From NCBI RefSeq assembly GCF_018449435.1, contig NZ_JAHCMU010000010.1, positions 1 through 64,000 on the forward strand: a stretch of 64,000 nt of DNA, given 5' to 3'. The translations under genes were made by a program, and so were the position numbers. Origin of the DNA: Flagellimonas sp. 389. Its GTDB lineage: Bacteria > Bacteroidota > Bacteroidia > Flavobacteriales > Flavobacteriaceae. Under the pieces are notes generated by a model. It did no database searches, was not told the DNA's origin, and saw only the letters and a program-made list of their open reading frames with translations. This document shows, in pieces, positions 13,004 through 27,441 of the stretch. Numbering within the stretch: the first letter of the stretch is position 1; every line of letters starts with the position of its first letter.

Positions 13004-16000
13004 CTATCTATTTATGTACAACCAATCTGTTCTTGGCTCAGAGCCATCACCAAGATCAAGCACGTAATAATAGGTGCCTACAGGTAGTAAATCTCCTTTT
13101 TGTATTGTAGCACGACCATTGGACGTGCCATCCCAATCGTTGTTATAGGAGCGCTGTTCAAATACAATATTGCCCCATCGGTTATACACTTGTAATAGGT
13201 TATTCGGATATCTAGAAATACAATCGATTTTAAAGAACTCATTGACACCATCCCCATTAGGAGAGAACTCGTTATAAATGATCAAACAAGATGGTTCAAC
13301 CGTAGCTTCGGCGGAATCATTGGTATTATTGACATCTAACTGGTCCACAAATGCCAAGCTCGCCGTGTTTACATAATCATTTATGTCCAATACTTCGACA
13401 ATAAGTTGAAGATTAGCAGTACCAAGAGCGTCCAGAACTTCTATTTCCCAAAATCCAGAAACTCCATCATAAGTTCCATCGGATGCTTGGAATGAAACCA
13501 ATCTATATCCTGATGGCACTTGTTCTTCGATACCGATATTGGTTGCCTGTAAACTACCTTGGTTGGTTATTGTAATCGTGAAACTAACCTCATCTCCTAT
13601 ATTGGGTGTTGCATTATCAACAGTTTTGGCAACTCCTATATCTGTAGTTTGTGGTGTCACAAATGCTACTGCCTCATCATCGTCATCAATACCGTCAGAT
13701 AAATCGTCCACATCCAAACCTTGATTTGGATCACTATCTGGATCAGCTAAATCACTAGCTGTTATCTCTGCAACATTCAAGTACTCATCTGCATTGCCTG
13801 TTGGCACATTAACCGTTGCCAATATGACCAAAGTCTCTGTACTCTGGTTTAAAATAGTTCCATTTGTATTCCAAAGCCCCGATGAAGCATCATATACTCC
13901 TGCAGTAACAATATGAGATTGATACGTGTATCCTGATGGTAACAAATCAGTAATTATAACTCCAGTAGCATCACTAGAACCGCTATTGGTCACATTGACC
14001 GTAAACTCCACTACATCACCAACATTGGGCGTAGGATTATCAACTGTTTTCGTTAAAGAAAGATCTGCCAGTCCATCTGGAATGGGGACAACCGTATCTT
14101 GATCATCTTCCGATTCCAAGTTATTGTCAGGAGTTGAATCAGGGTCGAATGTATCCAAAGCGATAAGTTCTGCCGTATTCCTGTAATCTCCACTTGGACG
14201 TACTTGAACTGTGATATCCAATGTTTCGGTAGCACCGTTAGCAATATTCGCCAACGCCCATGCTCCGGTCACCTCATTATACGTTCCTGATGAAGAAGTT
14301 GCCGACACAAAACTATATCCTGATGCCAAAACATCTTCTATTACAAGACCGGTCGCATCATTAGGGCCAGCGTTGTTCACGCCTATCGTAAATACAATCT
14401 GATCTCCTACTGAAGGACTTAGGTTGTCCACATTCTTAGTAATCGAAACATCCGTTATAACTCTTGGCGTAGTTGATTGTTCATCTTGATCATCTTCAGC
14501 AAGTATACCATTCCCTGGAGTTGAATCTGGATCTAGTTCGATAACGCTTACAACTTCAGCACTATTGGTATAATCTCCTGTCGGATTCACCTGAACGGTC
14601 ACATTGAGCACAATACTGCTATTCAAAGGAACTGTGCCCACATTCCACTGTCCTGTAGTTGCATTATAGGTTCCACCCGAATCATCAGAAATATATGTAT
14701 ATCCTGAAGGTAAAGCATCCTGCACTACAACTCCTGTTGCATCGCTTGGACCATCATTGGTCAGGTTCAATGTAAAAGTCACATTAGATGCCACATCTGG
14801 AAATTCATTATCCACTGTTTTTTCCAATGAAAGGTCTGCTGCAGGAATCGGCGTGGTACCTGCACTATCTTGGTCGTTTTCAAATATATTATTGTTATTT
14901 GGCGTTGAGTTTGGATCTAGATTATTTGAAGAAAAGACTTCTGTGACATTGAAATAATCTCCCGTTGGGTTTACAATAGCAACAATATTCAGGGTCTCCG
15001 TAGTTCCATTTGGTATGATTCCATTCAGTTCCCAAATTCCGGTTCCTGGCACATAAACCCCTGCAGTTCTATTGTTGGAAACATAGGTATATCCAGAAGG
15101 CAGTAGATCCAAGACCTCTACTCCAGTAACATCACTTGGCCCATTGTTAGAAATACTGATAGTGAAGATAACTTCATCACCTATAAATGGACTGAGGACA
15201 TCTACCGATTTACGAAGAATGAGATCAGAGACCAATACGGGTGTTGGCTCAATCGTCTGTTGATCATCTTCTGTGTCATCATTGTTCGCGGGTTCAGAAT
15301 CAATATCCTGCTCTGCCAAGTCCGTAAGTTCAGCAGTGTTGGTATAATCCCCGTTTGCAAGTACATTCGCTGTTATTACTATATTTTCAGTAACACCATT
15401 GTCCAAATCTCCTACGGTCCAAGATCCATTCAACGGCTCATAGACGCCCACGCTCGGTACTGCACTAACAAATTGATACCCTGAGGCCAAAAAGTCCGTT
15501 ACTACAATGTTTGTTGCATCACTTGGACCGTCATTGGTCACCGTTATCGTAAATACAATTGGATCACCAACATTTGGGGTAAGATCGTCAGCTACTTTTG
15601 TAACTGAAATATCAACAAGCTGTACCGGGGTGACAATTACTTCATCTTGATCATCTTCAGCAAGCACATTATTGTTGGGTGTAGAATCTGAATCACCTTC
15701 TGCATGCTGGGTTATTTCCGCTACGTTGGTGTAAACACCCGTAGTATTCACACTAGCAGTGATGTTAAGACTGGTAGAAGCACCATTGGCCAGTGTACCA
15801 ATATTCCAGATTCCAGTTCCATCGTCATAAGCGCCTGCTCCATTATCCGAAACATAGGTAAATCCAGAGGGTAGAACATCAGTAACTTGTAAGGTGGTGG
15901 CATCACTTGGTCCGTCGTTGGCAACGGTCAATGTAAAGACCACGTTAGAGTTAACATTTGGTGTGCTATTGTCAACGGTTTTCGTCAACGAAACATCTAC

Positions 16001-19000
16001 TATAGATCGAGGTACAATTACAATATCATCTTGATCATCTTCTGCTGCAACCCCATTGCTTGGAGTAGAATCAATATCAAATGCATCTGAGGCAATTACC
16101 TGTGCGGTATTCGTATATAAACCTGAGGCATTAACCAGAACATCGATAACCAATGTCTCTGTTTCACCGTTCTCCACAGTACCTACTTGCCAGATTCCAG
16201 TGTTTGCATTGTAAATACCCGAGGTGGCACTATACAATACAAAATCAAAACCGGAAAGTAGTTGATCTACTACCTGAACGTTGGTTGCATCAGCAGGACC
16301 ATCATTGGAAACTGTAATTTCAAAACTTATTTCATCTCCAACATTTGGTGTAGTATCATTGTCAACAACAATCTTGGTCAGGGATAAATCTGCCAGTAAT
16401 GGAGCGGCAGTTATAGCATCCTCATCATCTTCACTTTGGTTACCAGTATCGTTATTTGGCGTGCTGTCTATATCAAATTGATCACTAGCGGTCACTTCGG
16501 CAACATGCGTAAACTCTCCTGCTGTACCGGTCGGTGTCTGTACTGTAGCATTAAAGGTCAAGGTTGTGGTATTGGTTCCAACGGGCACCCCAAGTCCAGA
16601 CCATGAAATGACATTTGTTATAAGGCTAAAACTACCGCCATTGGTGATTCCCGTAATGTTTCCATATCCGGGTGGTACTAAATCAGTAACAGACACTCCG
16701 GTTGCCGCTACGTCTCCTAAGTTACTAAGATTAATAGTAAAGGTCACTACATCACCAACATCTGGTTGTGTATTGCTTGCAACTATTTCCAGTTCAATAT
16801 CTACGGATTGAGGAGTAACGACAAAAAAGTCTTCGTCATCTTCATCTTGATCTCCATCATCGTTTCCTGGCTCACTATCGGGGTCAAATTGATCTACGGA
16901 AGCAACTTCCGCAGTATTCAAATATTCGTCTGTTGTTCCGGTAGGAGCATTTACCGTGACTTCATAGGAAACCGTAGTATTTCCAACGGGTAATGAAGCA
17001 ATGTTCCATGTAATAAAGGTTCCCGCAATAGCAGTTCCTCCATTATTAACCGTACCCAAGGTATATCCCGAAGGAACAATATCCTCCAATACAATATTCG
17101 TTGCCTCTTCAGGACCATCATTGGTCAAGGTCAATTCAAATAGTATAGTATCTCCAACATTAGGAGTTGCACTTGATGCTGCGTTAATATCTTTCACAAG
17201 ACTTAAGTCAGCAGCATTAGGCGTTACTGCTTCAGTGTCTTGGTCATCACCTGTATTATCGTTTGGTGTACTGTTAGGATCGTACTGATCCGAGGCGGTA
17301 ACCTGTGCTGTATTTTCATACTCACCTGTTGCTCCTGTAGGTGCATTTACCGTAGCCTGATATGTGAGCGTACTTCCAGTAAGTGGTACCGTAGCTAAAT
17401 CCCATAGTATTGAGGAGCCTCCAAAATTATAGATACCTCCATCAGAGACACTTCCAGAAACTATAGAGTACCCTGATGGTACAATGTCCTCTACTCCTAC
17501 ATTGGTGGCCACACTAGGTCCTGCGTTGTTTATTTGAATGGTGAATGTGATCACTTCCCCTACTTCAGGGTTAGATTCATTTACTGATTTGTTCAAAGAG
17601 AGGTTTGCTTGTTGCGGCGTAAGCGTCAATGTTATTTCATCATCATCTGCAATACCATCTCCTAAGTCATCCACTCCCGGTCCCACCGAGGGATCACTAT
17701 CTATATCGGATTGATTACTTGCAGTGATTTGCGCACTGTTTGTATACTCTCCTACAGCTCCGGTTGGTGTATTAACCGTTGCCTCATATGTAAGGGCCAC
17801 ATTCCCACCGGCAGGAACAAAAAGCCCTGACCATTCTGCTGTATTGGCTGATATAGTTCCTCCACTATTCACAGCAGTAAGGGTAAAACCAATTGGAAGC
17901 ACATCCTGAACATCTACGCCAGAAGCGTTACTTAGCCCTGAATTAGAAATGACCAACTCGAACATAACGGTTTCTCCAACATTGGGTGTTGTGGTTCCCG
18001 CAATTACATTTTTCGCAATACTTAAATCAACCACTTCGGTAAGTCCAATAGTAATGGCATCTTCATCATCTTCACTTTGATTTCCATCGTCATTGTTCGG
18101 TGTACTATCTACGTCAAACTGATCGGCAGCTGTAATTTCAGAGATGTTGGTATATTCCCCACCTGATCCAGTTGGAGATTGCACTGTAGCTTGAAAAGTA
18201 AGTACCGTAGTATCCGTACCTTGTGGAACAGCTAACCCGTTCCATGTAATCAGACCTGTTCCGTTATCAAATAATCCTCCTCCAGTAATTCCAGTAACAT
18301 TACCAAAACCAGAAGGCACCAAATTTTCCAAACTAACGCCAGAAGCGTCTATTGTTCCAAGATTGCTCAAGTTTATCGTAAAAGTCACTACATCACCAAC
18401 ACTAGGCGAATTGGTACTTGCCAATAGTTCTACTTCCAAGTCGATTACATCTGGAGTGGTTATGGTAAAGGCTGATTCATCGTCCTCGCTTTGGTCGCCA
18501 TCATCGTTACCAGGAGTACTATCTGGGTCTAATTGATCAGAAGACGTTATTTGTGCCGTATTTCTATATTCATTGGTCGCACCTGTTGGTGCATTTACAG
18601 TGGCTTCATAAGAAAGTGTTATGGAACCTGCTGCAAAGGAAGCTATGTTCCAGCTTATTGTATTTCCTGAAGCAGTTCCACCATCGTTTACAGTGCCTAT
18701 TGTAAACCCAGAAGGAACAACGTCTTCAATTACTATATTGGTCGCTTGTTGGGGCCCACCGTTGGTTACAGAGAGTTCAAAGATGATGGTATCCCCAACA
18801 TCTGGTGTAGCACTTGAACCCGAACTAATATCTTTTGTTAAACTTAAATCTGAAACATTTACGGCAACTTCAGCAGAATCTTGATCATCCTCACCATCAA
18901 GACCATTGTTTACTGTAGAATCAATATCAAAAGTATCATTTGCAATGATTTCTGCGATGTTTAAATAATCTCCTGTAGCGTTGACAGTCACATCAAAAGA

Positions 19001-22000
19001 AAGACTTAGTGTACTGCCATTGGTAATGGAAAGATTGGACCACGTAATTGAAAGGTCTCCTATATTAACTACGCCTCCATTGCTTACCGTTCCAGGAACC
19101 AAAGAATATCCAGAAGGAATGGCATCCCTAACAGAAACGCCCGTTGCATCTGCACTTGTAGAAGCATCGTTATTAAATATATCAATGGTAAATGTTATTG
19201 TATCTCCTGTGTTTGCGGTTGCTGCGGAAGCAGATTTCGTTAATTCTAAGTCTACCCCTACCAAAGAAACTTCTATAGTATCTGAAGATACAGGGCAACT
19301 GCCATTGGAAACGGTCCATTCAAAAACATAGGTTCCCGAAGTAGCACCGAAAACTTCGGTATTTGGGTCATTTTCATCTACAAATCCTGCAGTGGTTGGG
19401 CCAGAAACCTGAGTCCAAACTCCAGTACCAGCAACCAAAGGAGGAACTGCTGCTAAGGTAACAGCAGAAAATTGGTCTACCGTTTGGTCTGGACCTGCAT
19501 CGGCAGTTCCAGGGTCTTCGTAAACTATGACCTCTATAGTATCTTCGAGATCGCAATTCCCATTTGTTACGGTCCATGTGAATTCATAAGTCCCCGCTTC
19601 TAAATTGTTTATTGTAGTCGTTTCGCTTGATGGAGTTGCAATATTTGGCACGGCACCAGGATTACCCCCAAAACCGGGGCCAGCAGTTTGTGTCCAGTTT
19701 CCAGTACCTACAGCAGGTACAACAGCGGCCATATTGGTCTGGTCACCACATACTTCCTGATCGGGACCTGCGTCTGCATCAGAAGGTGGGTTTGCTCCAA
19801 AAGTTATAAGAACTGTGTCTGAATCTGGGTCACATGCAGTAGGTGGAGTTGGATAGATGGAAGGATCATATTCCAAAGTCCATGTAAGTTCATATTGCCC
19901 TGGAGCCGAAACATTGGATATGGTTGAAGTCGGAGAGATTGGGTCATCAATTGTAAGCGTTTCTGAACCAGTAGGAGTATCTGTCAATGTCCATACACCA
20001 GTACTAAAAGGTATAACATTACCAGCCAGCTGTGTTTCCAGCTGACATGCGGTATCTTGATCAGGCCCTGCATCGGCAATCAGTTCTTCAAACAACTCGA
20101 CCCTTAGCACATCTTTCGAATCAGAACAATTTCCTGTAACAAAATTCCATTCCAAAACGTAAACACCTGGAACGGTCAACCCGGTAAGTGTTGTTGTAGG
20201 ATTTGTGTTATCGGTCAATGCAGCAGCACTTCCTGCGGGTTCTTCTGCTATGGTCCATGTTGCTGAGCTCACATCTCCAGGAGCAGTGTTGGCGGCCAAG
20301 GTTATAAACTCGTTCCCCACAGTAAACTCTCCCGCACATAAGATCCTGTCCGGACCTGCATTTGGCGGTATGGAAGGTGCCGCACTGGAAACAACAGTTA
20401 CATCATCGGTTGTAACACCACAAGCTGCAGCTCCAGCACCGTTTGTTGTAAAACGAAATTCATAAGTATTTCCTGGTGTTATCGTAACCTCAGCGACATT
20501 ACTATCCGAAGGGTTTTGATTTATAGTCGCAGCTGTTCCAGGAGCGCCTCCAACTCCAGGTCCAGATAATTGGGTCCATGTTCCTGTAGTACCAAAAGTT
20601 GCTTCTAACAAGAAATTGCTAACATCACATAAATTTAAATCCGAACCTGCATTGGCCTCAAAATAAACATTTATCGTTTTTGACGCTGACGAGATTGGGC
20701 AATTGCTATCACCGATGATAGTCCACTCTAAATTATAAGTTCCGGATACCAAGTTTGACAATGTAGCATTAGGGTCATTGATATCTGAAAATGTTGGTGT
20801 ATTGGGTGCGCCGGAAAGTACTGACCAAAATCCATTTTCGATGTTACTATCAAATGCATTTCCATCTAGTACTATACTCGTTACCGCTGTAGTAAGACAA
20901 TCTGTTTCAATTGGGGCGGCAACTTGTGCTATAGTTGGTGGTATCCCTACATCCAACGTAACCGTATCGGTGTCAGAAGAGCAACTTCCATTTGTTGCTG
21001 TCCATTCAAACACATATTGTCCCGAAAAAGAAAATGTTATCTGTGTAGCAGGATCTGTCTCGTCTGCAATTGTTACTCCTCCCGGACCAGAGACCTGCGA
21101 CCAGGTACCTCCACTACCCACTGAACCGGTAGCATCCAAAGTGAATGTATTATTACAATCAGCTTGGTCTGGGCCTGCATCAGCATTTGCATCTGCACCT
21201 ATACTTACTTCAACATCGTCTGTTGTCGATTGACATCCGGGACTGCTTATAGTCCATGTGAGTATGTAACTCTGTTCCGTTGTAATGGTAGCGTCAGTAT
21301 CAAATTGATTTGGATTGGCGAAGGTAATGCCCGTTGCTGGTACGGAAGTCCAAATACCCGTTTCACCTGAAGCTGGCTCATTTCCTGCAAGTGTGACACT
21401 GGTTGAACCAGCAGATAAGCACTGGTCTGGGCCCGCAACGGCTAAAGAAGGACCTTCAGTTAAATTTGTAGTAATAACAACAGTATCAAAACTTGGGGTC
21501 GGACAAACATTACTGTTTGGGTTTGCCACTGTCCAACGAAACGTATAGCTTTCACCCGCAGTATCCAAACCAGAAACCAAAGTCTTAGGATCATTCTCAT
21601 CTTCAAAAACAATAGTAGAACCTAGTGGTGCATTATCTACAGTCCATGTACCGACCAGATTACTGGCAGGCGGCTCATCAGCATCTAACCGAGTAGGTGT
21701 ATTAAAACAAATGTCTTGTGTGGGACCAGCTTCGGTGGTTATTGGGTCATCGTTTGAAACATTAACAGTTACAGTTGCCTCGGCAGAGGGTGCACATGCG
21801 TTACCACCAGTAATGGCATATTGAAAAACGTAAGTTCCGGGAACAAGGTCTTCGACATCTGTTATTCTACTGTACGGTGCGGTAATTGTTGCCGTGCTCG
21901 GCCCACTTAGCTGCGACCATAAAGAACTTCCATCTAAAACTTGATTCCCTGTCAACTCCGTTGATACATCATCACAATCAAGGGTCACATCGGTACCTGC

Positions 22001-23557
22001 ATTTGCTTGTGTAGGAGTTAACGAAATAATTACGTTAACCGCATCCGTAGCCTCACTACAACCTGTTTGAACGGCACCATTCAGCGACCTTCTAAAAACT
22101 ACGGTGTATGTTCCTTCCAAATCAAAATCGATAGTTCTTGATGTACTCCCAGCATTGCTATACAAATTTGGATTTACTACGGTAGAACCTACAGGCCCAC
22201 TAACTATACTAAAGGTATTGCTGCCATTTCCTTGTGTGGTATAAGGAATAGTGACCCTAGTAGTACCACAGGCAGCTACAATGTTGTCATCGCCACCATT
22301 TACTTCGATACCTACAGGATTTGTTGAATATCTTACTAATGCGCTACTAGAATCACTACATCCTGTTCCTGGGGTTGTATTGGTTATGGTATACGAAAAT
22401 CGATATGTGCTGCTACCATCCAAACCAGTTACCTGTGTCGTGCTATTTGTAGCAGTAAGAATATTAGCTGGGGTTCCACCAGTTGTAACACCAGGTCCTT
22501 CAATCTGCTCCCATTCTACAGTATCCCCTGCAAACTGCGGTTCAGAACCCACTAATGTTACAGTTGTTATTGAAGGGTCACAGAATCGTATGTTATTGTT
22601 TTGAATGGAAGCATTGGATATCTCTTGGGTTCCTTCATCAACATTGACCGTAACGGTATCTTCTCCAGTAACACATGGGCCAGAAACTGACCATCTAAAA
22701 ACATATTGACCTTGAATAAGTCCCGTAACTCCAGTATTTCTAATGTTTGGACTGACAATATTTGGACTACTAGGTCCAGAAACAAAAGACCATGTACCTA
22801 TTTGTCCATTAGTTCCATTACCAGCAAAAGTTCCACTTAGAGTTGTTGATTGTGTAACTGTATAACAATTATCTAGGTTTTGAGTGTTCCCGGCATCTAC
22901 AGTAGCTACACCTCCAAAGTTTGTAACTGTTATGGTCGAGGTAGACTCACAAAACTCTCCAGGCGCGTACTCTTGTCCTTGGATTGCCCATTGTAATGTT
23001 GTTGTTCCCGCGCTGTTTTCAGGTAAGTTAATACTTGTTGTAGGCGAAGTAACATCAGTAAAACTAACACCTGCATTATTGTTGCCCACTATGCTCCATG
23101 ACCCACTTTCACCGTTAACCACACTAGGTGGGTTGGCATTTAAGCTTACTGTTCCGGGACATGATTCAATATTATCTCCCGCATCTGCACTAGTAATTGG
23201 TTCCACGGTAATATTTACATCTTGAAACTGTGCAGAGCCATCGGTACATACGGCACTGAGTCTAAAAGTGTACATGTTTCCTCCAACCAGACCGGTTATT
23301 GCTGTGTTTACATCAGAAGGGTCTGCTATAATTACAGATGGACCGCCAACTTGTGACCAAGTAGGTCCACTTGTTTTGGGACCCGATGATGAACCAGAAA
23401 GATTAAAGACTGTAATGTTTTCGCAAATCGTTTCAGGGATACCTGCATTTACAGAACAGTTTTGACCGTGTCCATTTTGAACCGATATGAACAGAAGAAT
23501 TCCAAAGACAAAAAAGTGCCTTTTTATGAGGTTGGTTAATAAGACATGCATAGTCAA
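13004..23557 (-). CDS. Giant T9SS adhesin with PKD-like and DUF11 modules
   Basis: The frame encodes 3517 residues. A signal peptide (about 1-32, ending NGHGQ) is followed by about 15 PKD-like modules of roughly 94 residues (about 33-1435; recurring ADAGPDQ, GTWSQVSGP and YVFEWTV motifs). Fifteen DUF11 modules of roughly 130 residues come next (about 1436-3410; recurring DLSLTKTVDN, PNVGDVVTFT, NDGPSDATN, ASDQFDPDSTPNN and EDDQD). The type-B sorting domain (about 3422-3517) has EFSPNGDGVNEFF, QVYNRWGNIVFE and NDWDGTSNG. Acidic DDxD linkers suggest calcium binding. It should be a surface fibre for adhesion or gliding, exported by the T9SS with help from the PorP/SprF protein downstream. Confidence 0.92.
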   Translation of the reverse strand: MTMHVLLTNLIKRHFFVFGILLFISVQNGHGQNCSVNAGIPETICENITVFNLSGSSSGPKTSGPTWSQVGGPSVIIADPSDVNTAITGLVGGNMYTFRLSAVCTDGSAQFQDVNITVEPITSADAGDNIESCPGTVSLNANPPSVVNGESGSWSIVGNNNAGVSFTDVTSPTTSINLPENSAGTTTLQWAIQGQEYAPGEFCESTSTITVTNFGGVATVDAGNTQNLDNCYTVTQSTTLSGTFAGNGTNGQIGTWSFVSGPSSPNIVSPNIRNTGVTGLIQGQYVFRWSVSGPCVTGEDTVTVNVDEGTQEISNASIQNNNIRFCDPSITTVTLVGSEPQFAGDTVEWEQIEGPGVTTGGTPANILTATNSTTQVTGLDGSSTYRFSYTITNTTPGTGCSDSSSALVRYSTNPVGIEVNGGDDNIVAACGTTRVTIPYTTQGNGSNTFSIVSGPVGSTVVNPNLYSNAGSTSRTIDFDLEGTYTVVFRRSLNGAVQTGCSEATDAVNVIISLTPTQANAGTDVTLDCDDVSTELTGNQVLDGSSLWSQLSGPSTATITAPYSRITDVEDLVPGTYVFQYAITGGNACAPSAEATVTVNVSNDDPITTEAGPTQDICFNTPTRLDADEPPASNLVGTWTVDNAPLGSTIVFEDENDPKTLVSGLDTAGESYTFRWTVANPNSNVCPTPSFDTVVITTNLTEGPSLAVAGPDQCLSAGSTSVTLAGNEPASGETGIWTSVPATGITFANPNQFDTDATITTEQSYILTWTISSPGCQSTTDDVEVSIGADANADAGPDQADCNNTFTLDATGSVGSGGTWSQVSGPGGVTIADETDPATQITFSFSGQYVFEWTATNGSCSSDTDTVTLDVGIPPTIAQVAAPIETDCLTTAVTSIVLDGNAFDSNIENGFWSVLSGAPNTPTFSDINDPNATLSNLVSGTYNLEWTIIGDSNCPISSASKTINVYFEANAGSDLNLCDVSNFLLEATFGTTGTWTQLSGPGVGGAPGTAATINQNPSDSNVAEVTITPGNTYEFRFTTNGAGAAACGVTTDDVTVVSSAAPSIPPNAGPDRILCAGEFTVGNEFITLAANTAPGDVSSATWTIAEEPAGSAAALTDNTNPTTTLTGLTVPGVYVLEWNFVTGNCSDSKDVLRVELFEELIADAGPDQDTACQLETQLAGNVIPFSTGVWTLTDTPTGSETLTIDDPISPTSTISNVSAPGQYELTWTLEYDPSIYPTPPTACDPDSDTVLITFGANPPSDADAGPDQEVCGDQTNMAAVVPAVGTGNWTQTAGPGFGGNPGAVPNIATPSSETTTINNLEAGTYEFTWTVTNGNCDLEDTIEVIVYEDPGTADAGPDQTVDQFSAVTLAAVPPLVAGTGVWTQVSGPTTAGFVDENDPNTEVFGATSGTYVFEWTVSNGSCPVSSDTIEVSLVGVDLELTKSASAATANTGDTITFTIDIFNNDASTSADATGVSVRDAIPSGYSLVPGTVSNGGVVNIGDLSITWSNLSITNGSTLSLSFDVTVNATGDYLNIAEIIANDTFDIDSTVNNGLDGEDDQDSAEVAVNVSDLSLTKDISSGSSATPDVGDTIIFELSVTNGGPQQATNIVIEDVVPSGFTIGTVNDGGTASGNTISWNIASFAAGSITLSYEATVNAPTGATNEYRNTAQITSSDQLDPDSTPGNDDGDQSEDDESAFTITTPDVIDLEVELLASTNSPSVGDVVTFTINLSNLGTIDASGVSLENLVPSGFGNVTGITGGGLFDNGTGLITWNGLAVPQGTDTTVLTFQATVQSPTGSGGEYTNISEITAADQFDVDSTPNNDDGNQSEDDEDAITIGLTEVVDLSIAKNVIAGTTTPNVGETVMFELVISNSGLSNASGVDVQDVLPIGFTLTAVNSGGTISANTAEWSGLFVPAGGNVALTYEATVNTPTGAVGEYTNSAQITASNQSDIDSDPSVGPGVDDLGDGIADDDEITLTLTPQQANLSLNKSVNESNPEVGEVITFTIQINNAGPSVATNVGVEDIVPSGYSIVSGSVSDGGIYNFGGSSILWDLATVPLTGSTLTYQATVNAPTGATGEYENTAQVTASDQYDPNSTPNDNTGDDQDTEAVTPNAADLSLVKDINAASSATPNVGDTILFELTLTNDGPEEATNIVLEDIVPSGYTLGTVNNGGTAIAGTFITWNIASLPVGNTTVSYEVTVNAPTGTTDEYLNTAEVASVDQFDPDSEPGNDDGDQDEDDEDFFVVTPQSVDIELEIVASNTQPDVGDVVTFTINLSNLGDVAATGVSVTDLVPPGYGNITGITNGGSFSLITNVISWSGLGVPVGTNTTTLTFNATVQTPTGTAGEFTHVAEVTASDQFDIDSTPNNDTGNQSEDDEDAITAAPLLADLSLTKIVVDNDTTPNVGDEISFEITVSNDGPADATNVQVVDQLLSGFDFVLYSATSGIYNANTGIWQVGTVENGETETLVIDVLVNASGLYTNTAQVIASDAFDIDSTPSNGVAAEDDQDDIVIVPRSIVDVSLTKTVDNSTPNVNSNVVFTLTVANDGPSDATTLQVTDVLPSGFTYVSDNGAGAYDDGTGIWNIGTLANGASTSLNITASVNTTGVYTNVAEITQHAEGDSDSTPNNNVLAEDDQDEVIVTPVQLVDISVTKVADDLTPNVGDPIVFTITVTNDGPSDATNIVVTDFLASGYQFVSAVPSVGVYEPLNGSWTVGDLDNGVTENIVITANVLANGDYTNTAELTDLAEQDIDSEPANNDDTEDDQQTIEPTPVLVSDLILRKSVDVLSPFIGDEVIFTISISNNGPSDVTGVEVLDLLPSGYTYVSNNRTAGVYVPGTGIWELNGIIPNGTTETLNIVAIVNPTGDYFNVTEVFSSNNLDPNSTPNNNNIFENDQDSAGTTPIPAADLSLEKTVDNEFPDVASNVTFTLNLTNDGPSDATGVVVQDALPSGYTYISDDSGGTYNATTGQWNVGTVPLNSSIVLNVTVQVNPTGDYTNSAEVVSVIELDPDSTPGNGILAEDDQDEQSTTPRVITDVSITKNVDNLSPSVGDQIVFTIGVNNAGPNDATGLVIEDVLASGYSFVSATSSSGTYNEVTGAWALANIANGATETLDITVQVRPSGDYRNTAELIALDTFDPDSTPDNNLESEDDQDTVVPIPDGLADLSLTKTVDNPTPNVGDVVEFTVNVTNSGSSDATGVIITDLLPSGYTYQSHIVTAGVYDASSGLWNTNGTILNQSTETLVILATVNVPTGNADEYLNVAEITASDLADPDSDPNQGLDVDDLSDGIDDDDEAVAFVTPQTTDIGVAKTVDNATPNIGDEVSFTITITNQGSLQATNIGIEEQVPSGYRLVSFQASDGTYDGVSGFWEIEVLDALGTANLQLIVEVLDINDYVNTASLAFVDQLDVNNTNDSAEATVEPSCLIIYNEFSPNGDGVNEFFKIDCISRYPNNLLQVYNRWGNIVFEQRSYNNDWDGTSNGRATIQKGDLLPVGTYYYVLDLGDGSEPRTDWLYINR

Positions 23558-23923: not shown

Positions 23924-24382
23924 CTAGCTCCCAATATCCTCATCAGTAATCGTATAGGTATACTCAAAATGGTTCTTGCCGGTTTCCCGTACCGTCCAAT
24001 ATTGGTCTATATTATAAATGTTCTTACCTGGGGTATCCGGTTTGTAAATCTTCAATATTTCGTTGGCATTATTTGAAATGTAGATAGAATCAAAGACTGA
24101 GAGTGACAAGCCTGCCCGACCTATTCCTTCCGCTACCCCAATTCGTGGATAGTCTTGGCTATCCATTGATTCTACATTAATGATTTCAGCATTATCGATA
24201 AACTCAGATAGCAAAATAGCACTTATAAAATGGATTTTTAAATCACTATCGGTAGCATTTTCCAATAATGCATCAAGACTTTCACTTGGATCACAGCTTA
24301 AAATTAAATTAACCCCAATCATCCAGACAAAACCACGCAAAAAAGGAAAAGTCAAAACTTTATCAATCCCCAATATCTTCAT
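23924..24382 (-). CDS. TITDEDI-motif lipoprotein, third tandem copy
   Basis: This 152-residue protein has a signal segment ending in LILSCDPSES (lipobox Cys near residue 29). A divergent middle follows, then a C-terminal block with NIYNIDQYW and the terminal TYTITDEDIGS. The two genes upstream share the middle tryptophan motif (SPFNYNSW, SPYNFDSW) and the same ending, so the three are paralogues. The start overlaps the end of the second copy by 20 bases: bases coding DEDIGD-stop are read in another frame as MKILGID. The family is not recognised. It is likely tethered to a membrane facing the periplasm or outside. Confidence 0.6.
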   Translation of the reverse strand: MKILGIDKVLTFPFLRGFVWMIGVNLILSCDPSESLDALLENATDSDLKIHFISAILLSEFIDNAEIINVESMDSQDYPRIGVAEGIGRAGLSLSVFDSIYISNNANEILKIYKPDTPGKNIYNIDQYWTVRETGKNHFEYTYTITDEDIGS

Positions 24383-24848
24383 CGGTTATTGTAAATACTA
24401 TTTTACCCACTATATCATTGTTAAATGGTGGTTCGAACAACTCTAGTTTCCATGAATTATAGTTAAACGGACTCTTAATACTCTCCTCTAAATCACCAGA
24501 TAGCAATGTCCATTCAACCCTTAAGTCTTCATCGACATAAAGCTTTATTATTACGTTGCCCGTATTTACCAAGTCGTCGACGTAGCTCTGAATCGGTTTT
24601 TCTCCACCGTTAAATCCCAAACCTAAACTTGATAACAAAGACAACTGTTGACCCATTTGAATTTCTATTGAGTTTACCACTTTGCCATCTAAGTTTTCAA
24701 GTTCAAGTCTTACATTACTGCTAGAGTTGTTCAAGTAATTGTCCAAATAAATTTTATCTGGAGGATTCATCTCAGTTACCCCACAACTAATAAATGAAGT
24801 AAGACTGAGTCCAATTAGTAAAACTTTGTCAATTCTCAATATCTTCAT
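24363..24848 (-). CDS. TITDEDI-motif lipoprotein, second tandem copy
   Basis: The 161-residue protein has a clear lipoprotein signal (GLSLTSFISCGVTE, Cys near residue 22), a beta-rich middle and the C-terminal block SPFNYNSWKLELFE...IVFTITDEDIGD. It starts inside the last codons of the first copy (20-base overlap) and ends inside the start of the third, using the same out-of-frame overlap both times (MKILRID and MKILGID starts). Sequence identity between copies appears low apart from the C-terminal block, so the duplication is old. The function is unknown. Confidence 0.62.
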   Translation of the reverse strand: MKILRIDKVLLIGLSLTSFISCGVTEMNPPDKIYLDNYLNNSSSNVRLELENLDGKVVNSIEIQMGQQLSLLSSLGLGFNGGEKPIQSYVDDLVNTGNVIIKLYVDEDLRVEWTLLSGDLEESIKSPFNYNSWKLELFEPPFNNDIVGKIVFTITDEDIGD

Positions 24849-25347
24849 CCGTTATCGTGAATACTATTTCTCCATAAACAAATAGCCCATAACTGGGATT
24901 AAGAATTTCTTCAAACTTAAAAATCTCCCATGAGTCGAAATTGTACGGGCTGTTAACTTCACTTCCCAAATAATCCGCCACTCCACTCCATTCTTTAATG
25001 AAATCATTCCCTATGTAAAGCTCAAACCTAGGAACTTCAGCAACTGTATTGTATATGCTTATATTCATTTCGATAACAGTTTGAAAATCATTCTCTTTGA
25101 CCCCATCGGAAGAGTAGCGTTGCTCAAAAAAGTCTTGTTTTTTAGTATTTGGAAGTAAAACGAGGGTGTCCGCAATTACAACATTTCCATTATCAGACCC
25201 ATTGGCACCAAAATTATGATACACTAACTTTATTTCTTCATCTGTAGCGTTCCTAAAAACCCTTTGATAAATGTTGTCCTCGAATGATTCCTCAGGATCA
25301 CAGCTTAAAATTGAATTAAGGCCAATCATTATAGCTAGCAAACGCAT
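24829..25347 (-). CDS. TITDEDI-motif lipoprotein, first tandem copy
   Basis: The start at 25347 gives MRLLAIMIGLNSILSCDPEES, a short lipoprotein signal; another ATG at 25365 adds MMDRLI. The mature part has FRNATDEEIKLVYHN near the N-terminus, matching LENATDSDLKIHF in the third copy, then SPYNFDSWEI and the terminal VFTITDEDIEN. Its start lies inside the 3' end of the zincin-like gene, with an overlap of about 30-50 bases, so all four genes appear to be translated from one message. The family is not recognised. Confidence 0.62.
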   Translation of the reverse strand: MRLLAIMIGLNSILSCDPEESFEDNIYQRVFRNATDEEIKLVYHNFGANGSDNGNVVIADTLVLLPNTKKQDFFEQRYSSDGVKENDFQTVIEMNISIYNTVAEVPRFELYIGNDFIKEWSGVADYLGSEVNSPYNFDSWEIFKFEEILNPSYGLFVYGEIVFTITDEDIEN

Positions 25348-27022
25348 TATCAATCTGTCCATCATAATTTGTTTTTGTCTTTAATTGTGAAACAAGTTTG
25401 TTAAAGCTATTTGTCGTGGAAGTGAGACACGAAAAGATTTCCATAGTTGTAATGTCTTTTATATTGTCGACATCAAGCATAAATCCTGGGTTATACCAAT
25501 CCTCATTTTTGTTAGAGGGATAGTTTTTTGAAGGAAACTCATTGTCTAAAAATAACCACTCAATGTAATTCCCCCACATTTCTCCGACACCACAATATTC
25601 AGCATTTCTGCCTTTCCCATTTCCATAGGCGCCATAAGTTATAATATAGTTTATATATTTTATCCAATAGCCGCTACCCACCTTTTTAAAATGGGAAGCA
25701 TGGGCCAATTCATGGAAAGTAACGGAAAACACACCATCCGTTCCCTTACTTGCCCCGGCCCTAATGATGAGGTCGGGCTGTATAAATTTGAGCATGTGTG
25801 CCAGAGTATTAAGCGAAAGACTAATCCCGTTGGCCTTGGCCAAAAAGTTCTTCACCTTAGATTTTGAGGTAAAACCATAGACACCCCAGACCCTTCGCAA
25901 CATAGGCGCGGCAGATGGGCCCGTGCCACCCAAAGCCACAATCCTGAGATTGGAATGTGGCTTGCCTACGCCAAACTTTGTACAATAATTCAAATACTTT
26001 ACCGTGGCATTGTTCACGGTAGCCCAGCTCCAGGCACTATTGTTGGTATAAAGGTTTATATTGTGACCTCCATTGCCATGTTGTCCTGCCCTGTACCTTG
26101 CAGAGGATATGCTTACAACGGACCTCCACACCTTAAAGCCCAGTGTATTTTTGAATACCACCGTATAACGAACGGGCCTTCTGTATCTTCTGTTGACACT
26201 GTAATATCCTTGGGAGTTTGTCCAGCCTTTGGCCCATTTGAACCATCTACGGGTCTTTATCTTTACCCCTACCACGGGATCCATCCGCCCCGTAACCGTG
26301 TTCTTTACCTTCACATAGCCCAGTGGTCTTCTTTTACGTCTTTCTGTCTGGGAATTGCCGTATTCCTCTGGATTCTCATAATTGCCCGTTAAGCGCAGGG
26401 CCTCATCTTCCAAATCAAAGAGAAATTGCTTGGAGATCTTTGTCTTTCCTGCAACCGTAGTGGTCTCTTCTCCGTCTTCCATATCTTCTTCCTCTATGTG
26501 TGCAGGTTCGGGAAGAAATAAGTCTTCAATTTTTTCATACTTCACTCCGGGATGGAATTTATAATCCACAGGAACCGAAGTATATACCCACTTGGATTCC
26601 ACATTTACCGAATCCTCTGCGGGAAGATAGTCTCCTTCTTCCAGGATTTCCACGTCCATGGGAACACTGGATAGGTTCAGGGAGTCGGCAAGCAATAGCT
26701 TTTCTTGTTCATCGTTTTCTATCCAGAACTTTACATAAACATCGGTTGTATGTATCTCCGTAGGGTCTTTAAGCGTTTGTCCCTTATATTTCTTATTTGT
26801 CCCTGGTGAAACTTATTGCAACTTGATCAATGCCCTACGCATGTTAGCGACTGAATAAGGGTTTTCCAGTTTTTTACCAAGTACCACTTTTTTACCTGCA
26901 TCTTCTACATCAGTTTTAGGATTGTCCGCTACTGCATTGGTTGAGGGTGCTTCTTTTTGGCATGAATATATAAGCATAAGAGCAATACTTAAAGCAAGTA
27001 GGTTAAGTTTATTCATTTTCAA
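25316..27022 (-). pseudogene. Zincin-like lipoprotein gene interrupted by an in-frame stop
   Basis: The frame opens at 27022 with a lipoprotein signal (LALSIALMLIYSCQKE) and a KKLENPYSVANMRRAL segment, stops at TAA 26813-26815, then stays open in the same frame to 25316. The part directly after the stop (VSPGTNKKYKGQTLKDP, then TTDVYVKFWIENDEQEKLLLAD) has no good start codon. It continues a family I recall from other Bacteroidetes in which the NPYSVENM-type N-terminus leads into a TDLYVRF-type domain. Later come a carboxypeptidase-regulatory-like domain (VVGVKIKTRRWFKWAKGWT) and a HELAHASHF zinc-protease motif, with GEMWGNYIEW downstream as a possible third ligand. A 569-codon gene was probably inactivated by one nonsense change, unless the base is an error or is read through. 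Confidence 0.7.
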
Positions 27023-27356: not shown

Positions 27357-27359
27357 AAG

Positions 27360-27441
27360 TACTCGAGGTGGGAATCGAACCCACACGACCAAGGTCACTG
27401 GATTTTGAATCCAGCGCGTCTACCAGTTCCGCCACTCGAGC
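27360..27441 (-). tRNA. tRNA-Leu (anticodon CAA)
   Basis: The minus strand reads GCTCGAGTGGCGGAACTGG... with a 7-bp acceptor stem (GCTCGAG with CTCGAGT, one G-U pair). The anticodon stem CTGGA/TCCAG encloses the loop TTCAAAA, so the anticodon is CAA. A long variable arm (TGACCTTGGTCGT) is typical of leucine tRNAs, and the T arm is GTGGG/CCCAC with TTCGATT. The length is 82 bases and CCA is not encoded. Confidence 0.95.

What the first reader, a model, noticed from the sequence alone, without database searches (positions are those of the whole stretch)
23924..25365. Tandem lipoprotein genes whose conserved C-terminus encodes the next gene's start
Three paralogous lipoproteins all end in TITDEDI plus two or three residues. 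In the two downstream junctions the same bases (GATGAAGATATT...) are read first as DEDIG and, one frame over, as ATG AAG ATA TT (MKILGID or MKILRID). The 20-base overlap is kept in both junctions although the proteins have otherwise diverged, and a matching MRILGAS start exists after the last copy. This suggests gene duplication with a built-in restart cassette, where C-terminal motif conservation and translational coupling constrain each other. I know no description of this family.
Basis: partly seen in the sequence, partly recalled or inferred. Interest (0 to 1): 0.75.

Follow-up and report, generated by a model that had tools for sequence, protein, structure and literature searches.

The report
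Immunity-gene array behind a swappable protease
Three back-to-back overlapping genes turn out to be part of a bank of small, membrane-anchored probable inhibitor proteins sitting behind a protease whose business end is swapped between related marine bacteria, which looks like an undescribed bacterial weapon-and-antidote system.

Summary
In detail: three tandem minus-strand lipoprotein genes, each ending TITDEDI plus two residues, with two exact 20-nt overlaps in which motif DNA also encodes the next start. Two relatives carry 5 and 7 such genes; 12 of 12 junctions in the three loci share the overlap. The larger finding lies upstream. The array follows an HExxH metallopeptidase lipoprotein, unknown to Pfam and NCBIfam, whose C-terminal lobe is exchanged wholesale. 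The window copy is 93-94% identical to both relatives before HExxH and 32-35% after it; its first lipoprotein is 30-32% identical to theirs. Across 119 pairs with similar N-parts, first-lipoprotein identity follows the C-lobe (rho 0.77) more than the N-part (0.34). Orphan C-lobes, solitary lipoproteins in genomes without a matching peptidase, and one chromosomal slot with different alleles point the same way. Best reading: a polymorphic metallopeptidase effector with cognate lipoprotein inhibitors and a bank of spares. Toxicity and inhibition are inferred, not shown; both structure models failed.

The parts
25316..27016 (-). HExxH metallopeptidase lipoprotein (MP), interrupted by an in-frame TAA at 26813-26815 (ORFs 26813-27022 and 25316-26695)
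   Evidence: 1 TAA inside; intact 613-aa relative in L015 829-2670
25700..25714 (-). HExxH zinc-binding motif (HELAH, then AxH)
   Evidence: H436 E437 H440 H443 E487 invariant in 20 aligned MPs; coordinates computed by me from residue 328 of the ORF
25316..25630 (-). swapped C-terminal lobe, type beta (..YNDWP); approximate start just after YIITYG
   Evidence: 77-100% identity per 40-residue block to L015/L016 before the switch, 15-33% after it
25316..25365 (-). 50-nt overlap of the MP end with the ORF of the first lipoprotein
24829..25365 (-). lipoprotein C (178 aa), predicted cognate inhibitor/immunity protein of the beta lobe
   Evidence: orthologues 85-87% identical in L015 and L016, where it is not first
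24829..24848 (-). 20-nt overlap C/B: C-terminal motif DNA of C encodes the start of B
24363..24848 (-). lipoprotein B3 (161 aa), predicted spare immunity protein
   Evidence: 82% identical to L016 B3
24363..24382 (-). 20-nt overlap B/A
23924..24382 (-). lipoprotein A (152 aa), of the type that is first behind alpha lobes; predicted spare here
   Evidence: 89% identical to the last A gene of L015
23924..23943 (-). terminal copy of the junction (latent ATG, no lipoprotein gene follows)

Best explanation
The three genes are a short polyimmunity array of surface or periplasmic lipoproteins behind a polymorphic metallopeptidase effector. Shown by sequence: the peptidase has a lipoprotein signal, a conserved N-terminal part and an HExxH..E zinc site; its C-terminal lobe, starting just after HExxH, is exchanged between relatives; and the first lipoprotein tends to change with it. 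Further lipoproteins follow, several of them in families that stand first behind other lobes elsewhere. Inferred: the peptidase attacks neighbouring, related cells that lack the matching lipoprotein; the matching lipoprotein blocks the lobe, perhaps through its conserved acidic C-terminal tail; and the extra genes are spares that protect against other lobe types and let a strain change lobe without harming itself. In the window, L015 and L016 the spacer between array genes is gone and the start of each gene lies inside the C-terminal motif of the one before. That should couple translation and lets any cassette sit next to any other. The window's own peptidase gene is interrupted by a stop codon, so this strain may now be immune only.
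For: (1) Sharp mosaic: window against L015 and L016 is 94 and 93% identical in the 200 residues before HExxH, 32 and 35% in the C-lobe, and 32 and 30% in the first lipoprotein; L015 against L016 is 98, 61 and 52. (2) Over 119 MP pairs with N-parts at least 60% identical, lipoprotein identity follows the C-lobe (Spearman 0.77) more than the N-part (0.34). Over 44 loci the partial rank correlation C-lobe~lipoprotein given N is 0.40, N~lipoprotein given C-lobe 0.27. C-lobe class and first-lipoprotein class agree with ARI 0.58, reached by 0 of 9999 shuffles; the cut-offs were mine and lump alpha with beta. (3) In 50 tabulated MP/lipoprotein pairs the small ORF starts -113 to +62 nt from the MP stop; of the MPs fetched, L117 has none. 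(4) Extras belong to families that are first elsewhere: L080 gamma MP, then E, C, B; L073 beta MP, then C, E. The C gene that is first behind the beta lobe in the window is 85-87% identical to gene 4 of the L015 array and gene 6 of the L016 array, both headed by alpha lobes. (5) Orphan C-lobes without the N-part, directly followed by a lipoprotein: L018 (MP residues 458-606) and L120. (6) Single A-type lipoproteins in 3 of 71 genus genomes that have no peptidase match. (7) One chromosomal slot (DFTPG gene - katG) holds alpha, beta or gamma alleles in nine loci, 3.56-4.92 kb; in 19 of 20 other sampled loci it is 126-2383 bp. (8) Gene order C-B3 in the window is B3-C in L016 with the same 20-nt junctions.
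Against: No toxicity, peptidase activity, inhibition or surface exposure was or could be tested. Co-inheritance explains part of the correlation: N~lipoprotein given C-lobe is still 0.27, and the pairs are not independent. Exceptions: L075 (beta) has a B-type lipoprotein first and C second; L116/L123 are 98% N and 86% C-lobe but 60% lipoprotein; L118/L125 are 54% C-lobe but 80% lipoprotein; in the delta class 11 of 13 rows share one lipoprotein class, L109 and L128 do not; L117 has no lipoprotein. No known delivery domain was found. Both AlphaFold models are useless (mean pLDDT 47.0 and 28.8), so no fold or complex supports binding. L018 lies at the edge of a contig with ambiguous bases in an 82%-complete genome and may be an assembly artefact.
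Confidence: 0.7

Rival explanations
1. A protease with its own lipoprotein inhibitor, made for self-protection or control of a nutritional or host-directed protease, with no role in fights between bacteria (as in Tannerella KLIKK proteases and potempins). Extra copies widen the range of proteases that can be restrained.
For: KLIKK proteases are each preceded by a small lipoprotein gene (PMC4404884, passage seen), called a potempin with inhibitory activity specific for the co-expressed protease (PMC7296668, passage seen). The MPs here keep the zinc motif, 49 of 50 HExxH, so the activity class does not vary, unlike many polymorphic toxins.
Against: Orphan C-lobes, single lipoproteins in genomes without a matching peptidase, spares of other types, and different alleles at one chromosomal slot are what conflict systems show and have no clear use in self-control.
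Confidence: 0.2
2. One reading: simple gene duplication of lipoproteins with a built-in restart cassette, in which the C-terminal motif and the next start codon constrain each other; no partner is needed.
For: 12 of 12 junctions with the exact 20-nt overlap, kept although gene order differs between window and L016; in L073 and L075 the ATG at the same position is in frame with the next gene.
Against: In 17 of 19 related genes with the latent ATG no lipoprotein follows in its frame; the terminal copies keep the ATG as well (3 of 3); the lipoprotein type follows the upstream peptidase lobe.
Confidence: 0.07
3. Surface lipoprotein antigens that diversify by recombination against phages or grazers; the peptidase is a neighbour by accident.
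For: Variable middle and conserved ends of the A family (amino-acid identity 0.35-0.36 in the middle, 0.92 in the last 30 columns).
Against: A small lipoprotein follows the peptidase in 50 tabulated pairs from many genera, and on a Chryseobacterium plasmid; type linkage to the C-lobe.
Confidence: 0.03

Closest known systems
Polymorphic toxin systems with polyimmunity loci (Zhang et al. 2012, PMC3482391; passages seen)
   Same: Conserved N-part with exchangeable C-terminal part, immunity gene next to it, standalone C-terminal cassettes, homogeneous tandem arrays of paralogous immunity genes.
   Different: The N-part is a lipoprotein with no RHS or other known trafficking domain in Pfam scans. 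The C-lobes compared all look like one peptidase class. The immunity proteins would be lipoproteins: the paper calls Imm65 the only lipoprotein immunity protein in its collection and lists no immunity partner for Tox-MPTase1-5. In the overlap loci each start lies inside the previous gene's conserved C-terminal motif.
Tox-MPTase1-5 metallopeptidase toxin domains (PMC3482391, passages)
   Same: HExxH zincin-like toxin domains; the paper calls them distantly related to Wss1-like peptidases, and the best PDB profile match here, weak at E 0.046, is a WLM-domain metalloprotease, 5jig.
   Different: Those are typically attached to RHS repeats; no RHS model matched here.
KLIKK proteases and potempins of Tannerella forsythia (PMC4404884, PMC7296668; listing, passages)
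   Same: Bacteroidota protease gene next to a small lipoprotein gene, reported as a specific inhibitor; pairs vary together.
   Different: There the inhibitor gene is upstream and the proteases share a KLIKK-ending C-terminal domain; here the lipoprotein is downstream, the shared part is N-terminal, and there are arrays of other types, orphan lobes and single genes.
SitA/SitI of myxobacteria (PMC5562445, abstract and section list seen)
   Same: Polymorphic lipoprotein toxin with a cognate immunity gene.
   Different: SitA C-terminal domains are nucleases (section title) delivered by outer membrane exchange; here the lobe is a metallopeptidase and delivery is unknown.

Membership tests
Polymorphic toxin system | conserved N-terminal part with variable, exchangeable C-terminal part | tested here: met
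   window vs L015/L016 94/93% then 32/35%
Polymorphic toxin system | immunity gene directly downstream, type linked to the C-terminal part | tested here: met
   as a statistical tendency; exceptions L075, L116/L123, L118/L125, L109, L128, L117
Polymorphic toxin system | orphan C-terminal/immunity cassettes lacking the N-part | tested here: met
   L018 (contig edge) and L120; L114 has a fragment whose next listed lipoprotein is 1250 nt away
Polymorphic toxin system | recognisable trafficking or secretion domain | tested here: inconclusive
   N-terminal lipobox seen; among 20 aligned MPs the only Pfam match at E 0.01 is DUF6431, E 0.0012, in one member
Polymorphic toxin system | toxicity of the C-terminal part and neutralisation by the immunity protein | not testable with these tools
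   needs expression and competition experiments
Polyimmunity locus | tandem same-strand paralogous immunity genes with little spacing and variable number, not interrupted by toxin genes | tested here: met
   window 3, L015 5, L016 7 genes, uninterrupted; in contig L018 a C-lobe fragment lies between lipoprotein genes
KLIKK protease/potempin pair | shared C-terminal domain ending KLIKK | tested here: not met
   C-termini printed end FEAYYW, YPDWP, NNWKD and similar, none KLIKK
KLIKK protease/potempin pair | inhibitor lipoprotein gene precedes the protease gene | tested here: not met
   it follows in the 50 tabulated pairs; upstream genes were not checked systematically for small lipoproteins
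KLIKK protease/potempin pair | lipoprotein inhibits the neighbouring protease | not testable with these tools
   needs an assay
SitA-type lipoprotein toxin | N-terminal lipobox on a polymorphic toxin | tested here: met
   MP N-termini such as MHSCQKEE
SitA-type lipoprotein toxin | nuclease C-terminal domain | tested here: not met
   HExxH metallopeptidase motif in 49 of 50 rows
Tox-MPTase1-5 | association with RHS repeats | tested here: not met
   no RHS model among Pfam matches of 20 members

The most novel reading that the evidence does not exclude
The 20-nt overlap makes each immunity gene a self-contained cassette. Because genes of different families end in the same motif, which also encodes the next start, a cassette can be added, lost or moved by recombination in the short shared ends and still land in an operon that is translated. 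The array would then be a genetically plastic inhibitor library, matched to a peptidase that changes specificity by exchanging only the lobe behind its zinc site. Supporting facts: six kinds of junction with one geometry, C-B3 order in the window against B3-C in L016, the same ATG position in frame in L073 and L075, and, for the A family, ends far more alike than middles: identical codons at conserved residues 0.75 in the last 30 columns and 0.81 in the first 20 against 0.48-0.56 between columns 20 and 100.
Probability: 0.3. Interest if true: 0.82.

Novelty: new variant of a known kind. Interest (0 to 1): 0.64.

Why it matters
If right, this is an undescribed lineage of antagonism proteins in Flavobacteriaceae: a lipoprotein metallopeptidase that changes target or inhibitor specificity by swapping one lobe of the catalytic domain, with lipoprotein immunity proteins kept in arrays. 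In the 2012 survey of polymorphic toxins, Tox-MPTase1-5 had no listed immunity partner and lipoprotein immunity was a single exception. It offers natural sets of matched and mismatched protease-inhibitor pairs with almost identical backgrounds (window, L015, L016), so specificity can be tested directly. The overlap junction is a clear case of a protein motif reused as a start signal across a gene array.

Tried and rejected
Tried without result: Pfam, NCBIfam and PADLOC scans of the lipoproteins and MPs gave no convincing family (the best were DUF7665 E 0.032-0.033 for C-type lipoproteins and DUF6431 E 0.0012 in one of 20 MPs). PDB sequence search gave nothing convincing for P0005 or P0003; with the MP profile the best was 5jig at E 0.046. 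AlphaFold gave mean pLDDT 47.0 for the lipoprotein (15 rows) and 28.8 for the MP (3 rows), because only window, L015 and L016 proteins could be used as rows; I ran no fold search on such models. No phage record matched the MP.

Considered and rejected: that the overlap is held by joint constraint; that the family is phage-borne; that decay of the toxin with retained immunity is itself evidence. 11 of 50 MP ORFs are under 500 aa, some split or truncated, others perhaps only misjudged starts. I noted no broken first lipoprotein, but I did not search for any, the one in L085 runs off its contig, lipoproteins are several times shorter, and I ran no test.

Rows dropped: the 50-pair table was typed and leaves out L117 (no lipoprotein), the orphan fragments of L018 and L114, and the later loci L134, L141 and L162, where a lipoprotein-like ORF also follows. 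One search left out 6 of 50 rows with short N-parts (L077, L079, L109, L113, L120b, L130) from the distance test. One search kept only pairs with N-part identity of at least 60% (119 pairs, not independent, so its printed P-values should not be taken literally). The C-terminal motif regex matched 37 of 50 last-26-residue stretches against 14 of 176 background stretches; it was written after seeing the sequences.

Literature: seven searches of a CC-licensed library listed nothing that by title or abstract describes this peptidase/lipoprotein family. Subscription papers and preprints are not in that library. The potempin structural and biochemical papers were not seen.

Full report
What is there. 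The window carries on the minus strand three tandem lipoprotein genes (C 24829-25365, B 24363-24848, A 23924-24382) that end TITDEDIEN, TITDEDIGD and TITDEDIGS and overlap by exactly 20 nt at both junctions. In each overlap the motif codons read one frame over give ATG AAG ATA TTG. Upstream, and overlapping C by 50 nt, lies a metallopeptidase gene (25316-27016) with HELAHASHF. It is interrupted by an in-frame TAA at 26813-26815; the L015 relative is intact.

Relatives of the array. A protein search in the genome collection found two loci, Flagellimonas meridianipacifica (L015) and an uncultured Allomuricauda (L016). They have 5 and 7 lipoproteins behind the same peptidase. All 12 lipoprotein-to-lipoprotein junctions of the three loci overlap by 20 nt, across six kinds of family transition. 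Orthologues are recognisable: win C 85-87% to L015/L016 C, win B 82% to L016 B3, win A 89% to the last L015 gene. Order differs: C-B3-A in the window, B3-C-A3 at the end of L016. So the cassette order changes and the junction geometry does not.

How old the overlap is. In genome G238 (L017, L018) the same families, mostly ending ITDEDIE, are separated by 27-57 nt, once by 263 nt. Single genes in L104-L106 have no following lipoprotein. Of 24 related genes outside the three loci, 19 carry an ATG in the motif by script. Its frame reaches the next lipoprotein in two, L073 and L075, both with the 20-nt position and a leader of some 25-30 codons before a more usual start; in the other 17 it closes within 46 codons. 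So the motif with its latent ATG is the more widespread feature, the same geometry may be usable in two more species, and full use with no spacer is seen only in the window, L015 and L016. I infer that loss of the spacer put an existing ATG to use. I do not support the idea that start and motif hold each other in place.

The peptidase. With the intact L015 protein (P0005) as query, 26 of 71 genus genomes and 14 of 397 sampled family genomes match at E 1e-6, the window's own genome included. A 20-row profile found 6 of 249 family and 3 of 296 phylum genomes, own genome included, one of them outside the family; only a few candidates per genome were scored, so these are lower bounds. H436, E437, H440, H443 and E487 are invariant in 20 aligned members. 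One distant relative lies on a mobilizable Chryseobacterium plasmid near tra genes, overlapped by 11 nt by a lipoprotein-like ORF, with a second paralogue after it. Pfam, NCBIfam and PADLOC scans did not place the family.

The C-lobe is exchanged, and the first lipoprotein with it. Against L015 and L016 the window peptidase is 77-100% identical per 40-residue block up to YIITYG, 28 residues counted from the first H of HExxH, and 15-33% beyond the switch. I call the lobe types alpha (..FEAYYW), beta (..DWP), gamma (..FNNWKD) and delta (..YMYDNCK); the names are mine. First lipoproteins: alpha lobes have type A in L015, L016, L017, L072, L077, L078 and L079; beta lobes have C in window, L073, L074 and L076, and B then C in L075; gamma lobes have E in L080-L084; the delta class has one lipoprotein class in 11 of 13 rows. 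Quantitatively: 119 pairs with N-part at least 60% identical give rho 0.77 for lobe~lipoprotein and 0.34 for N~lipoprotein. In 44 loci the partial rank correlations are 0.40 and 0.27. Class agreement is ARI 0.58, 0 of 9999 shuffles, with cut-offs that I chose and that lump alpha with beta. Pairs are related by descent, so these values rank hypotheses rather than prove recognition. Counter-examples are L075, L116/L123, L118/L125, L109, L128 and L117.

Marks of a conflict system. Spares of other types follow the cognate gene (L073: C then E; L080: E then C, B). Orphan C-lobes lacking the N-part: L018 (residues 458-606 of the query, from just behind HExxH) and L120 (starting near the third zinc ligand), each followed by a lipoprotein. 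L114 has a longer fragment whose next listed lipoprotein is 1250 nt away. Thirteen of 71 genus genomes have array-type lipoproteins; ten of these have a peptidase match and three do not, and those three have one gene each. Two of these single genes lie between direct repeats (123 nt in L105, 29 nt in L106), each together with another small gene, as in cassette arrays. In nine loci the module fills the space between a ..DFTPG gene and katG, 3.56-4.92 kb, with alpha, beta or gamma lobes; L112 has another peptidase type behind the same upstream gene, but katG was not found in the stretch. In 19 of 20 other loci sampled (16 from genomes without a match, 4 from genomes with the MP elsewhere) the space is 126-2383 bp; L161 had no katG in the stretch. 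I measured distance only, not what fills the short space.

Mechanism. Shown: gene structure, lobe exchange, linkage, overlaps. Inferred from these and from the general logic of polymorphic toxins (PMC3482391, passages): the peptidase acts on neighbours, the first lipoprotein neutralises it, the others are spares. The C-terminal tail, with E, D and I invariant in 15 aligned array proteins, is the most constant part and could reach the zinc site; that is a guess without structural support. With the stop in the window's peptidase gene, this strain may be immune but unarmed.

Against known systems. It works like a polymorphic toxin with a polyimmunity locus and meets the genomic criteria tested; toxicity and trafficking were not shown, so I do not file it as a proven member. 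It resembles KLIKK/potempin pairs in arrangement and perhaps function but fails two defining features: gene order and shared C-terminal domain. It resembles SitA in being a lipoprotein but shows a metallopeptidase, not a nuclease. Novelty: new variant of a known kind.

Noticed in passing
window 26813-26815: In-frame TAA near the start of the metallopeptidase gene; the L015 relative is intact, so the window strain may carry only immunity genes (or the draft sequence has an error).
   Followed up: partly
window 27359-27441; L015 1-520: tRNA-Leu(caa) lies just upstream of the module. In L015 ARAGORN finds no tRNA, but by eye the same place shows a tRNA 3'-end-like stretch and, on the opposite strand, what reads like the start of an integrase, so the module may sit beside an integration hot spot.
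   Followed up: partly
L105 4632-5957 and L106 260-1282 (+ coordinates): Single A-type lipoprotein genes lie between direct repeats (123 nt at 82%, 29 nt at 97%) among unrelated small genes, like an integron-type cassette array.
   Followed up: partly
C-terminal motif codons: Where the residue before ED is D or N its codon ended in T in the genes read, also in genes with no overlapping neighbour, although Asp codons elsewhere in these arrays are GAT in 95 of 145. Unexplained; the genes are related, so not independent.
   Followed up: partly
L073 3500-3519 and L075 3615-3634 (sense-strand coordinates): The motif ATG at 20 nt is open and in frame with the next lipoprotein (177 and 198 codons), giving a long leader; a possible intermediate state of the overlap.
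   Followed up: partly
L111, L112, L116 (genomes G414, G419, G438): Separate arrays of 3-4 lipoproteins, many ending CDGPCN-like, behind another peptidase type (..LFNNW), again tandem and same-strand.
   Followed up: no
window 13004-23557: A 3517-aa minus-strand ORF downstream of the array with many repeated domains; similar-looking ORFs begin behind the arrays of L015 and L016.
   Followed up: no
L162 (plasmid NZ_CP044508.1, 4986-8263): Distant peptidase plus two paralogous 175-176-aa lipoprotein-like ORFs on a mobilizable Chryseobacterium plasmid, annotated only as hypothetical proteins.
   Followed up: partly
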